A stretch of 51,852 nt of DNA. Origin: Lentisphaerota bacterium (GTDB taxonomy: Bacteria > Verrucomicrobiota > Lentisphaeria > Victivallales > Victivallaceae). A program made the position numbers and the translations under genes. This document shows positions 44,298 through 47,420 of the stretch, in pieces (position 1 is the first letter of the stretch; every line of letters starts with the position of its first letter). A model generated the notes under the pieces. The model did not search any database. It saw only the letters and a list, made by a program, of their open reading frames with translations, and was not told where the DNA came from. The DNA lies in the NCBI GenBank assembly GCA_015061605.1, contig SUWH01000021.1, positions 1 to 51,852 of the forward strand. The letters run 5' to 3'.

Positions 44298-44479
44298 TTT
44301 TTGATAACTCCTTTCATCCATGATGAATATTAGTTCAGTATTTTTGTCTGCTGTGATAAAAGATACAACAAAATGGCAGATGATGCAAATTTAAAAACAG
44401 AAAAATATCGAAAATCATTTTTGTTGTTATCATTGATGAATTTTTACTGTTTCTGAAGTAAAAAAATATCTCCTGTTGC

Positions 44480-44508
44480 TTGTAAATTTTTATGGTAAGA
44501 AATATATT
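44480..44508 (+). promoter_or_regulatory. Promoter for the second pseudopilin/DUF4838 cluster
   Basis: TTGTAA (44480-44485), 17 bases, TATATT (44503-44508), 80 bases before the ATG at 44588. It would read the interrupted pseudopilin and the following genes. Confidence 0.55.
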
Positions 44509-44587
44509 AGTCTCCAGTATAATAAATGCATACAAATCAAAAAGATAATAAAATGGAAACGTCGATAAGCAAAAGGGACGGGGGATT

Positions 44588-45538
44588 ATGAGAAATTACA
44601 AAGTTTTGTCCGGAGTACTCCGGAGTAAAGCGTTCCGCTTTACTCTTATAGAACTGTTGGTTGTCATTGCACAATATTGCCGTAATCATGTAAAAGTTCT
44701 GTATAACCGTACCGGTATGCAAGCCGCAGGGGGCGGCGCGTTGGTACGGATGTGTACGGACAGGTACGGAAAAGTACGGAGGAAAGCGCCGCAGAAACCG
44801 GCTTTGGGGGTACACCATAATGCTTGCAAAGCAAGCGCTTCATGCACAGACAGTGCGCTTCATATTTGCCGCAGGCAAATGCTTCATACGGCGGAGCCGT
44901 GCTTCATTCGATCAGCGTTCACGCTGATTGAACTGCTGGTTGTCATTGCAATAATAGCAATTCTTGCGGCGATATTACTGCCGGCATTACAGACTGCCCG
45001 GGAACGCGGCAGAAGCAGTTCCTGTCTGAATAACTTGAAACAGCTCGGTATCGCATTCAATCAATACGGCGATGATTACCGGTATTATCCGTGGTACAGT
45101 CATTGGTTCCGCAATGATTCAACCAAGGGGACAATAGTCGGATATATCACTCAAAACAAGCAGAACGGGGCTGATAAGCACCGTCATTTTGACTGTCCTA
45201 CCAGTGATGGTTACGGGTATTACGGCAGCAGTTATGAGTATGGTACAGATTACGGTGTCAATTACAGCGGATACTGGGGCGGAGATAAGTGGCAGAACGT
45301 TTCCATTATCCGGCGTCCGTCCCGTCTGATCCTGGTCATCGACACCTGGCCCAATGAAACCAGCCACAACTCCTATATGACCTATTTCCCCGGCGCCGAG
45401 GGCGGAAAGGACCGGATACAGTACCGTCACAACCGGGCAGCCAATATGCTCTTCTGTGACGGACATGTGGATCGCCATGACCGCAATTTCAGCATCGGGC
45501 AGGGAGGTGCTGACCGGCAGATGTGGTACAACGAATGA
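44588..45538 (+). CDS. Pseudopilin with a 279-base in-frame insertion and duplicated leader
   Basis: 316 codons remain open. The N-terminus ([17 protein letters not shown]) leads to a first partial prepilin motif [11 protein letters not shown], which then turns into unrelated sequence ([15 protein letters not shown]...). After 93 codons a second full motif appears: [17 protein letters not shown], then [18 protein letters not shown] and a globular part ending [14 protein letters not shown], the H-X9-DG element. The last pilin segment is intact, so a working pilin could be made from an internal ATG at 44879 ([18 protein letters not shown]) or by translation through the whole ORF. A 316-residue product would have a ~110-residue leader, which a prepilin peptidase would not normally accept. 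The ribosome site at 44588 is a weak GGGGG. The gene precedes a glycosidase-like gene by 10 bases. Confidence 0.6.
44609..44645 (+). repeat. 16-bp palindrome and 10-bp-stem hairpin at the first pilin motif
   Basis: TCCGGAGTACTCCGGA (44609-44624) is a perfect palindrome. It is followed by GAGTAAAGCG (44623-44632), loop TTC, and CGCTTTACTC (44636-44645), a perfect 10-bp stem whose 3' arm encodes the start of FTLIE. Confidence 0.85.
44744..44783 (+). repeat. Four direct 10-base units with core GTACGGA
   Basis: GTACGGA starts at 44744, 44754, 44764 and 44774, each followed by three variable bases. It is the same 10-base-period motif type (core TACGGA/TACGGAC) as at 18361-18410, located inside the pilin insertion. 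Confidence 0.85.
44822..44931 (+). repeat. Array of five hairpins joined by identical GCTTCAT linkers
   Basis: H1 44822-44836 (GCTTGC/GCAAGC, loop AAA), linker 44837-44843; H2 44844-44856 (GCAC/GTGC, loop AGACA), linker 44857-44863; H3 44864-44880 (ATTTGCC/GGCAAAT, loop GCA), linker 44881-44887; H4 44888-44900 (ACGGC/GCCGT, loop GGA), linker 44901-44907; H5 44908-44931 (10 bp with one G-T pair, loop TTCA). Linkers are identical (GCTTCAT; ATGAAGC on the other strand); stems share no sequence. The 3' arm of H5 is the pilin coding sequence for the start of the second FTLIE. Confidence 0.9.
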
Positions 45539-45548
45539 GGCTTTTGAT

Positions 45549-47420
45549 ATGATGTATACCGGTTCCATGCTGGCAGTCAATGATGCTGTCGGCGTAAGTA
45601 ATTTACAGCGTTTTGTCGATTGCCGACTCGGCAATTTCGTCATTCTGAAAATACATTGGCACAAAAACACCACTGTTTCCAGAGAGGTGATTGAAAAAGC
45701 CATCAATTTCTGTTGTGAACACCATATTTACTTTATGTTGAGCGAATTTCTCGACCGCTACACCCGGGAACCGTGGAAGCTTCTGGAACATCTTACCAAA
45801 GAGGATTGGAGTGATTTTCAGAAACTCGGCGGTGAATTTTTCTGCGGCAACCTCACCATTTGCGAAAAAGGCGGAGCCGTCTACTGGCCGCTCGGATATA
45901 AACACGGCAGTATGCTCATGGAAAAAGCCGATACCATGGATGAGGCAATGGGAAAATATGTGGACAGCTTGAGACTGGCTGTCGAAGCTGAACACAACTG
46001 GAACCGGGAAAATCTGGTCTGTATAGACTCTTCTCTGCTGCACAAATACCATTTCGCTTCCGGAGTGGATATGATCGCCCTTGAACTTTTTCCCGGCAAC
46101 TGTGAAATGATGTTTCCTGCAGTGCGCGGTGCCGCCAGAGCCGCCGGAAAAACCGCTTTCGGTACCGATATCGCCATGGTGTGGTACGGCGGCGTGGAAA
46201 AGGACGAATTGTGGTTCAAACGATGGAAAATCTCTCTCTATTATTCCTATTTATCCGGTGTGACCTGGGCGGTCTCTGAAACCGGGGAATTCGGGATCAA
46301 CGGTCCATTCGGACGTTATCACGATTTTGACAGCGATGTCTGTGTCCGTTTCCGGAATATCCTGCATGACTTCTATGAGTATACCCGCCGCAATCCCCGT
46401 CCGGAAGGACTTCCGCAAGTCCGGATCGCCATCGTCCACGGTCAGTATGACGGTTGCGGCGGTTTGTGGAACAAAGAGGTCTGGGGACAGTATCAGGATG
46501 AGAAATTTCTCCATTCCGATGCGGAAGACAGCTATGATTTGCTTTCTGTACTGAATAAAAAAAGCGACTGGTTCGATGCCGGACGGATGGGAGAACGGGA
46601 TCTTTCCGGCAATCCGCCGCTCGGACAGTATGACATCCTCCCGGTGGAGGCTGATTTGGAAGTCATGCAGAAATATCCGGTATTGGTTTTCCTCGGCTGG
46701 AACACAATGGATGAATCTCTTTATGAGAAGTTGAAACAATATGTGAGTTCCGGCGGCAGATTATTCATGTGCAGCGGACACTTGAATTGTTCCGTTGACC
46801 GCAAGGAGCCGATCCGGCTTTATAACGATGGTGATGTGGCGGATCTTTTCGGTGTCCGCTTGAAGCGGAGCAACAGAAAATTGCGCCATGCCGGACTTAA
46901 ATTCATCGCCGACAGCGATATGATTGAATATGCCTATCCCAACTGGACGGAAAATGCCGATCCCAAGTATATGGATACATTCATTCCGGAAAATCAGGTC
47001 GAACTCTGCGGAGCAAAAACTCTTGCTGTCACAGCACAGGTGTTTTCCGCTTATCAAAAAGAAAATCTCGCCGGAACTCCGCAGGAGACCCCTGCATTTA
47101 CCGAATACCGTCTGGGCAGCGGGTATGCTTCTCTGGTGACGCTTGACGGCTATCCCGGAAGTGTCGGGATAAAAGAGTTTTACCGGGAGATATTGAAGTG
47201 CGTGTGCGCTGCGGAACAGGATAAGCATTTACAGATCTGCGCGCCGGACAAGGTGCGTTATTCTGTGTATGACGACGGGGAAAAATACAGCTTGTTTTTT
47301 CTGAATACCGATTTCGATCTGCCGGCTGCTGTAAAAGTTTTTTACCGGGGAAATTGCCGGGAACTCATCATCCCGGAAGCCTCCCCTGAAACATTGAATA
47401 TTTCCAAAATGGAGGATTGA
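45549..47420 (+). CDS. Glycosidase-like protein with a beta-galactosidase-type trimerisation/GATase-like domain
   Basis: 623 residues from ATG 45549 (GAGG eight bases upstream, just after the pilin stop); an in-frame upstream ATG at 45456 lies inside the pilin gene. There is no signal peptide. The first half looks like a TIM barrel (EKAINFCCEHHIYFMLSEFLDRY, SGVDMIALELFPGN, SGVTWAVSETGEFG). Residues ~390-470 resemble the glutamine-amidotransferase-like trimerisation domain of GH42-type enzymes: DLEVMQKYPVLVFLGWN, then EKLKQYVSSGGRLFMCSG. The last ~100 residues form a small beta domain. Catalytic Glu residues cannot be assigned with confidence. I take it as a cytoplasmic or exported glycoside-acting enzyme in a cluster with secreted DUF4861-like and DUF4838 proteins. 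Confidence 0.6.
   Translation: MMYTGSMLAVNDAVGVSNLQRFVDCRLGNFVILKIHWHKNTTVSREVIEKAINFCCEHHIYFMLSEFLDRYTREPWKLLEHLTKEDWSDFQKLGGEFFCGNLTICEKGGAVYWPLGYKHGSMLMEKADTMDEAMGKYVDSLRLAVEAEHNWNRENLVCIDSSLLHKYHFASGVDMIALELFPGNCEMMFPAVRGAARAAGKTAFGTDIAMVWYGGVEKDELWFKRWKISLYYSYLSGVTWAVSETGEFGINGPFGRYHDFDSDVCVRFRNILHDFYEYTRRNPRPEGLPQVRIAIVHGQYDGCGGLWNKEVWGQYQDEKFLHSDAEDSYDLLSVLNKKSDWFDAGRMGERDLSGNPPLGQYDILPVEADLEVMQKYPVLVFLGWNTMDESLYEKLKQYVSSGGRLFMCSGHLNCSVDRKEPIRLYNDGDVADLFGVRLKRSNRKLRHAGLKFIADSDMIEYAYPNWTENADPKYMDTFIPENQVELCGAKTLAVTAQVFSAYQKENLAGTPQETPAFTEYRLGSGYASLVTLDGYPGSVGIKEFYREILKCVCAAEQDKHLQICAPDKVRYSVYDDGEKYSLFFLNTDFDLPAAVKVFYRGNCRELIIPEASPETLNISKMED

What the first reader, a model, noticed from the sequence alone, without database searches (positions are those of the whole stretch)
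44822..44931. Array of perfect hairpins with unrelated stems and an invariant 7-base linker inside a pilin gene
Five consecutive stem-loops (stems 6, 4, 7, 5 and 10 bp; loops 3-5 bases) are separated by four copies of exactly GCTTCAT, without a spare base. The stems share no sequence, yet each is fully self-complementary (one G-T pair in H5). Ordinary repeats conserve sequence; here pairing is conserved and sequence varies, while the linker does the reverse. That implies a process that builds or maintains palindromes unit by unit: template switching, a hairpin-specific transposon or recombinase, or selection on RNA structure. H5 uses the pilin coding sequence as its 3' arm, as if the array grew from the pilin site. 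I know of no described element with this layout; that is from memory only.
Basis: seen in the sequence. Interest (0 to 1): 0.88.

Follow-up and report, generated by a model that had tools for sequence, protein, structure and literature searches.

The report
Seven-base-linked hairpin arrays in pilin genes
The row of tiny hairpins in this pilin gene is one copy of a widespread repeat whose fixed seven-base spacer runs in families with a small ring-forming protein gene, which may tie together several unexplained bacterial repeats, including the orphan Gut-1 RNA.

Summary
It is not unique. Related arrays sit in five prepilin genes of this genome, and I collected 48 pilin copies from held loci. Stems covary: 13 of 33 pairs change on both sides, against 4.9 in shuffles.

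The same spacer links hairpins beside tRNA genes in Lentisphaerota and in gut Clostridia, in some loci directly upstream of a four-helix-bundle gene (PF05635/TIGR02436: 23S rRNA-IVP, Avd-like). Several other PF05635 lineages have their own spacer, and spacer type follows the protein tree (9 changes for 10 types; shuffled 18.4). On plasmids, 16 of 19 such genes have plain tandem 7-base repeats in at least one flank (control 1 of 309). Rfam's orphan Gut-1 RNA scores above its cut-off on three such arrays, but not on the window's.

Best reading: a non-autonomous offshoot of an undescribed "heptamer plus four-helix-bundle" element class that spread in frame through pilin genes, carrying a replacement FTLIELLV. 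The moving enzyme, and binding of the heptamer by the protein, are inferred. Y1 transposases and reverse transcriptases do not track the arrays.

The parts
44588..45538 (+). Prepilin-like ORF (316 aa) that contains the whole insert and array in frame
   Evidence: Pfam PF07963 N_methyl and PF07596 DUF1559
44623..44645 (+). Hairpin at the first pilin motif, its 3' arm made of RFTL codons
   Evidence: read; related DNA at C29 and C3 of the own genome
44639..44671 (+). First (upstream) [17 protein letters not shown] copy
   Evidence: translation
44672..44821 (+). Left part of the insert, with GTACGGA direct repeats (44744-44780); shared with C10, C36 and C24 of the own genome and with G038
44822..44836 (+). 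Hairpin 1 (6 bp, loop AAA)
44837..44843 (+). GCTTCAT heptamer 1
44844..44856 (+). Hairpin 2 (4 bp, loop AGACA)
44857..44863 (+). GCTTCAT heptamer 2
44864..44880 (+). Hairpin 3 (7 bp, loop GCA)
44881..44887 (+). GCTTCAT heptamer 3
44888..44900 (+). Hairpin 4 (5 bp, loop GGA)
44901..44907 (+). GCTTCAT heptamer 4
44908..44931 (+). Hairpin 5 (10 bp, loop TTCA); 3' arm is pilin coding sequence
44918..44950 (+). Second [17 protein letters not shown] copy, continuous with the pilin domain

Best explanation
The array is a non-autonomous member of a class of repeat elements built on a lineage-specific 7-base repeat that is inherited together with a small four-helix-bundle protein of the 23S-rRNA-intervening-sequence/Avd family (PF05635, TIGR02436). 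In simple members the gene is flanked by tandem heptamers, usually inverted between the two sides. In gut lineages short perfect hairpins stand between the heptamers. Shown: the anatomy, the recurrence, the covariation, the link of spacer type to protein clade, and related arrays in different pilin genes with a duplicated FTLIELLV and an open frame. Inferred: the protein (solved relatives have five chains) binds the heptamers, which the hairpins hold as exposed single-stranded stretches when the strand is single; folding of active copies is needed for spread, and stems are kept perfect by that selection and/or by template-switch correction; inserted copies then decay. Also inferred: in pilin genes the element enters after about codon 8 of FTLIELLV and carries its own FTLIELLV, so the mature pilin is unchanged and the extra leader may be cut away by prepilin peptidase.
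For: Own-genome copies at 91, 88, 85 and 71% identity in different pilin genes; a 93% match in G038 that covers only 44636-45009 of the 1301-base query. Covariation 13 of 33 pairs against 4.9, 0 of 500 shuffles, slid partners 0-4. Among the 30 PF05635 loci returned by a family search made without regard to arrays, 29 have 150 or more bases upstream: 19 of 29 have a 6-mer repeated 6 or more times there, 6 of 29 a period-7 tandem repeat in a flank, 23 of 29 one or the other. In the wider set, part of which was fetched for its arrays, 39 of 47 genes pass the 6-mer test; 40 of 397 control ORFs do, and at least 14 of the 30 control hits printed are the same arrays. Spacers between the repeats have stems of 4 or more in 101 of 199, shuffled 10.1. 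Spacer labels (set by hand) change 9 times on the protein tree for 10 types, the minimum; shuffled mean 18.4, least 14 of 1000. Period-7 repeats in a flank of 16 of 19 plasmid genes, control 1 of 309 random places in other genomes. PF05635 matches in 25 of 30 array-rich and 19 of 48 array-poor family genomes, p = 1.6e-4; over the cut-off 22 of 30 and 16 of 48, p = 0.001. Gut-1 model above gathering score on L568, L569 and L585. None of 45 type A/B pilin arrays has a stop in the pilin frame; 11 and 3 have stops in the other two. 29 of 31 testable copies have an upstream pilin motif by a permissive pattern.
Against: The own genome has one PF05635 gene above cut-off, and its array has the other spacer type (CTTCAC, L559); no cognate type-I gene was found in this 88.7% complete MAG. 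G019 (98% complete, 49 spaced pairs) has only a sub-cut-off PF05635 hit, G044 (171 pairs) only a partial match with a stop, and G046, G048, G052, G053 and G055 no match. Of the 29 unselected PF05635 loci, 6 show neither kind of repeat. Spacer-protein congruence also follows from simple co-inheritance of linked DNA. The genome association has no correction for kinship, and its threshold of 10 was chosen after seeing the counts. No clean empty/filled orthologous site was obtained. No moving enzyme was found.
Confidence: 0.6

Rival explanations
1. Structured RNA. The arrays act as RNA (Gut-1 is filed as an sRNA): a leader or decoy that binds the four-helix-bundle protein, for example for autoregulation or as an RNA partner upstream of its gene, much as tandem RNA repeats precede toxin genes in type III toxin-antitoxin loci (recalled). 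Copies in pilin genes are by-products.
For: Array lies directly upstream of the gene in many loci; Rfam Gut-1 hits; covariation.
Against: Mismatches show no G-U preference: G-T 11, A-C 13. The + strand of the window folds better against shuffles as DNA (z -3.0) than as RNA (z -1.96). Triloops on the GCTTCAT strand are GNA in 33 of 62 and the closing pair is C-G in 84 of 97, a kind that PMC4686876 (passages read) calls extraordinarily stable in DNA. Arrays occur in both orientations and inside a coding frame. None of this excludes an RNA role.
Confidence: 0.25
2. Mutational upkeep alone. Quasi-palindrome correction by template switching keeps stems perfect without selection; spread is by homologous recombination between the many pilin copies.
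For: Near-perfect pairing with few intermediates and no strand bias of mismatches. PMC6649704 (passages read) discusses this for mitochondrial coding palindromes. Many pilin-motif copies exist in the genome.
Against: Does not explain the constant heptamer, its change with the protein clade, or the placement beside tRNA genes and PF05635 genes.
Confidence: 0.2
3. REP-like element moved by a Y1 (RAYT/IS200) transposase.
For: Short interspersed palindromes in multiple copies.
Against: PF01797 has no match in G000, G018-G023 or G028, which are array-rich, and is most abundant in array-poor G003, G001 and G015; 12 of 30 rich against 17 of 48 poor, p = 0.81.
Confidence: 0.03

Closest known systems
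Gut-1 RNA (Rfam RF01706; PMC2864571, passages read)
   Same: Short hairpins separated by a constant GUGAA(AU)-type spacer; the model scores 65, 59.1 and 53.8 bits on arrays upstream of PF05635 genes.
   Different: The window array scores 22 against a gathering score of 50 and has a GCTTCAT/ATGAAGC spacer. Gut-1 was listed as a human-gut noncoding RNA; the passages read name no protein partner.
23S rRNA intervening sequences with IVP ORFs (recalled, except the Pfam name and remarks in PMC10053308)
   Same: Same protein family; hairpin-forming DNA accompanies the gene.
   Different: Here beside tRNA genes, in pilin genes, between other genes and on plasmids, with heptamer arrays.
Rickettsia palindromic elements (known here from remarks in PMC6649704 and recall)
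   Same: Palindromes inserted in frame in protein genes.
   Different: As recalled, families of single palindromes with conserved sequence; no heptamer spacer and no PF05635 link that I know of.
Cyanobacterial short tandem heptamer repeats (recalled, not from a call)
   Same: 7-base tandem repeats flank PF05635 genes on plasmids, most of them cyanobacterial.
   Different: No hairpins between heptamers; I did not test whether the classical repeats are the same sequences.
Diversity-generating retroelements (Avd)
   Same: Avd is homologous to PF05635 (PMC10053308, passages read).
   Different: No reverse transcriptase match in array-rich G018, G019, G021, G023, G025, G026 or G044.

Membership tests
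Gut-1 RNA RF01706 | Score at or above the gathering score of 50 bits | tested here: not met
   Window 22 bits; in the order 16 of 137 genomes match at E <= 0.001, best 39 bits, 0 over the cut-off, and control E. coli also gives a sub-cut-off match. Met by L568, L569 and L585, other arrays of the class.
REP/RAYT palindromic repeats | Y1 transposase in the genome | tested here: not met
   No PF01797 match in G000 (88.7% complete).
Diversity-generating retroelement | Reverse transcriptase with template and variable repeats | tested here: not met
   Own genome has one partial RVT_1 match (positions 8-59, 29.9 bits, on another contig). Template and variable repeats were not searched.
Heptamer plus PF05635 class (proposed here) | Hairpins separated by a constant 7-base repeat | tested here: met
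Heptamer plus PF05635 class (proposed here) | Same heptamer occurs in arrays directly upstream of PF05635 genes | tested here: met
   15 of 31 homologs in held loci have 3 or more GCTTCAY spacers within 700 bp upstream, including a Clostridia MAG; part of these loci had been fetched for their arrays
Heptamer plus PF05635 class (proposed here) | Cognate PF05635 gene in the same genome | tested here: inconclusive
   Own MAG has only the CTTCAC-type gene above cut-off; 88.7% complete
23S rRNA intervening sequence | Inserted in a 23S rRNA gene | tested here: not met
   Array lies in a prepilin ORF
Mobile element | Filled and empty orthologous sites | tested here: inconclusive
   Upstream-gene orthologs of the G022 tRNA-Val locus found in four genomes, but no tRNA was seen in their fetched flanks; G024 has the identical tRNA at another place without such an array directly after it

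The most novel reading that the evidence does not exclude
A previously unrecognised class of genetic element in which a pentameric IVP/Avd-type protein reads a lineage-specific heptamer on single-stranded DNA or RNA. It joins the orphan Gut-1 RNA, plasmid heptamer repeats and tRNA- and pilin-borne hairpin arrays into one system, with a protein-heptamer code that can be read from sequence and elements that survive in pilin genes by rebuilding the cleaved N-terminus.
Probability: 0.5. Interest if true: 0.92.

Novelty: categorically new. Interest (0 to 1): 0.85.

Why it matters
PF05635/TIGR02436 proteins are common and without assigned function outside Avd (recalled), and Gut-1 has been an orphan structured RNA since 2010. 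The finding gives both a possible partner and a testable code: predict the heptamer from the protein clade, then assay binding. It also shows pilin leaders being extended by serial in-frame insertions, a route to long modular prepilin leaders.

Tried and rejected
Chance was rejected. Y1 transposase was rejected as driver and reverse transcriptase was not supported. No phage record matched the window DNA. The raw linker pattern is noisy: 72 of 78 genomes match, many with only 1-6 chance or coding matches, 43 of 387 match, some of them coding repeats (G311, G216, G361). The all-genome scan was cut at 120 stretches, so distribution outside the groups named is unknown. Orthologous empty site: tried with one tRNA-Val locus, without a clean answer. 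Literature: ten searches; none of the papers listed joins, by title and abstract start, hairpin arrays or heptamers to PF05635, but few subscription papers are held and I read passages of only four (PMC2864571, PMC6649704, PMC4686876, PMC10053308). Rfam hits to microRNA and plastid families were taken as chance on palindromes.

Dropped or hand-set: contexts identical over 120 bases were merged. In one search, two arrays of another layout (L469, L470) and one of 48 at a contig edge were left out. The stop count covers the 96 array bases only. The 49 PF05635 genes were those found by tblastn with two queries, so the more distant L538-L548 (11 of the 30 loci) were missed there; one search examined them (L542 dropped for short upstream DNA). 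Four of the 49 were too short for the tree. In some searches, linker labels were typed by hand for 33 of 45 tips; L573 was labelled ATGATG although its top 6-mer was GCAAAC, and L576 (top 6-mer ACATCA) was labelled ATGATG too. In one search counts were typed; gene positions were typed.

Full report
The feature. Window 44822-44931 holds hairpins of 6, 4, 7, 5 and 10 bp, joined by four exact GCTTCAT heptamers. It lies inside a 316-aa ORF with a prokaryotic N-methylation motif and a DUF1559 domain. The ORF has [11 protein letters not shown] twice: at 44639-44671, itself in a hairpin, and at 44918-44950, where the last array hairpin ends. Everything between is in frame with both.

Copies. A BLAST of 44588-45010 against the own genome gives long copies in C10, C36, C24 and C34 (91, 88, 85 and 71%), all in pilin genes. 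In the genus, 23 of 34 genomes match window 44300-45600 at E <= 1e-20, and many matches begin near window 44817 and end within the first part of the pilin. I collected 48 distinct pilin arrays from held loci. Where 75 or more codons are open upstream (31 of 48; 17 shorter), 29 show an upstream pilin motif by a permissive pattern. Of 45 arrays in two layouts, none has a stop in the pilin frame over the 96 array bases, 11 and 3 have stops in the other frames, and all spacers are GCTTCAT or GCTTCAC. Chains with three motif copies occur (L415, L437, L465).

Structure. In 26 aligned arrays (23 distinct), 97.4% of cells pair; 13 of 33 pairs change on both sides (shuffles 4.9, 0 of 500 reach it; slid partners 0-4). 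The number of further pair types is less striking (19 against 16.2; 19 of 500 shuffles reach it). In the last hairpin the positions that change on both sides are synonymous pilin codons, matched by the array arm. Related sequences can exceed shuffles without structure, so the slid control carries the weight. Across two layouts (44 distinct arrays) the mismatches are 11 G-T and 13 A-C, beside others: no RNA wobble preference, as if copies decay freely after insertion. Among 580 distinct spacers of 9-30 bases between GCTTCAY sites in the loci then held, 148 have outer stems of 3 or more against 9.25 in letter shuffles. Among the 124 with stems of 4 or more, 62 loops are triloops, 33 of them GNA, and the closing pair is C-G in 84 of the 97 with loops of 3-5. 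GNA loops closed by G-C pairs are an exceptionally stable kind in single-stranded DNA (PMC4686876, passages read).

Where else. The three-heptamer pattern matches 43 of 387 phylum genomes: own-family genera, seven genomes of a second family of the order, and a few others, among them G379 and G401, far away in the phylum, with true hairpins; some matches are coding repeats. In the capped all-genome scan, hairpin-filtered arrays occur in 10 Lentisphaeria and 6 Clostridia/Oscillospiraceae loci; one further printed locus, L157, looks like a coding repeat. ARAGORN finds a tRNA gene in 18 of 34 array loci scanned. Several show a nested layout: an inverted inner array sits in the loop of an outer stem that itself varies with pairing kept (CTGAAAAGGC/GCCTTTTCAG against CGTCAGGC/GCCTGACG). 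In 6 of 10 tRNA-linked cases tested, the first hairpin's arm begins in the tRNA's CCA end; in the other 4 a hairpin follows it. This echoes the pilin arm.

The protein. Downstream of several tRNA-linked arrays is a ~120-aa ORF: TIGR02436 four-helix-bundle protein, E 1.2e-26, and PF05635 23S rRNA-IVP, E 1.9e-24. Solved relatives are 2RLD and 2GSC, five chains each; PMC10053308 (passages read) notes homology of this family to Avd. Of 31 distinct homologs in held loci, 15 have 3 or more GCTTCAY spacers upstream; a second clade, at about 65% identity, has hairpin arrays with a CTTCAC spacer instead, and its gene is the only one above cut-off in the own genome (L559). In Clostridia and in two unverified faecal phage records, other clades have, as read by eye, ATGATG, ATGAATT, ATGATAT, GCGATAT, GTGAAGTT, ATGAAAT and other spacers. 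By script, 39 of 47 genes have a 6-mer repeated 6 or more times in the upstream stretch, against 40 of 397 control ORFs (at least 14 of 30 printed control hits are the same arrays); stems of 4 or more fill 101 of 199 spacers, against 10.1 shuffled, and for the 23 loci with other spacers 25 of 83 against 2.9. Because part of that set was fetched for its arrays, the fairer test is the 30 loci of the family search: 19 of 29 usable pass the 6-mer test, 6 of 29 have a period-7 repeat in a flank, 23 have either, 6 neither. On the protein tree the ten hand-set labels of 33 tips change 9 times, the minimum; 1000 shuffles give 18.4 on average and 14 at least.

Gut-1. Rfam's Gut-1 model, listed in 2010 as human gut only and probably not cis-regulatory (PMC2864571, passages read), scores 65, 59.1 and 53.8 bits (gathering 50) on arrays upstream of PF05635 genes in L568, L569 and L585. 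It gives sub-threshold matches of 29-44 bits in L568, L577, L578, L579, L585 and L586, and no match at E <= 0.5 in the other 10 of 17 sources, the five CTTCAC-type loci included. The window array reaches 22. So Gut-1 appears to be this kind of array from some PF05635 lineages.

Heptamers without hairpins. On plasmids, mainly of cyanobacteria, 16 of 19 examined PF05635 genes (from, which matched 26 records each) have a strong period-7 tandem repeat in at least one 220-base flank (control: 1 of 309 random places in other genomes). 17 of 19 share 3 or more inverted 9-mers between flanks, though in L602 shuffles reach the same number and in L570 nearly so. The fixed seven bases of the window thus look like the basic repeat of the class, with hairpins as an addition in gut lineages.

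Mechanism and limits. I infer that the protein recognises the heptamer and that hairpins present it in single-stranded nucleic acid; this is untested. PF05635 matches occur in 25 of 30 array-rich and 19 of 48 array-poor family genomes (p 1.6e-4; over the cut-off 22 of 30 and 16 of 48, p 0.001), whereas Y1 transposase (12 of 30, 17 of 48) and reverse transcriptase (10 of 30, 13 of 48) are not associated (no kinship correction, threshold chosen after seeing the counts). Against a strict need for the gene: G019, 98% complete and array-rich, has only a sub-cut-off hit, and five other array-bearing genomes (G046, G048, G052, G053, G055) have none. How elements move, and whether pilin copies move by their own route or by recombination between pilin motifs, is open.

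Noticed in passing
L086 (G000:C34:12200-14500) and L436: A different pilin-inserted family ([15 protein letters not shown]... and relatives) that also ends in a palindrome whose 3' arm is FTL-coding DNA.
   Followed up: partly
L076-L080 (own genome C47, C38, C14, C46, C8): Intergenic units of about 118 bp (tandem in several loci) with TTATCATATCC, hairpins and GCTTCAC spacers, several beside long terminator-like palindromes.
   Followed up: partly
L612, L613: The PF05635 gene sits between cas2 and cas1 on plasmids of Nostoc sp. TCL26-01 and Anabaena cylindrica PCC 7122.
   Followed up: no
L615, L616: The PF05635 gene sits between DUF1156 and Swt1-family HEPN genes on Gloeocapsa and Chlorohelix plasmids.
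   Followed up: no
window 44744-44780: Four short direct repeats GTACGGA in the left part of the insert, kept in other copies and replaced by ACGGA variants in L434.
   Followed up: no
MAG contig ends, e.g. L413, L427, L439, L461: Contigs often begin or end at these arrays, as expected of repeats that break assemblies; copy numbers are therefore lower bounds.
   Followed up: no
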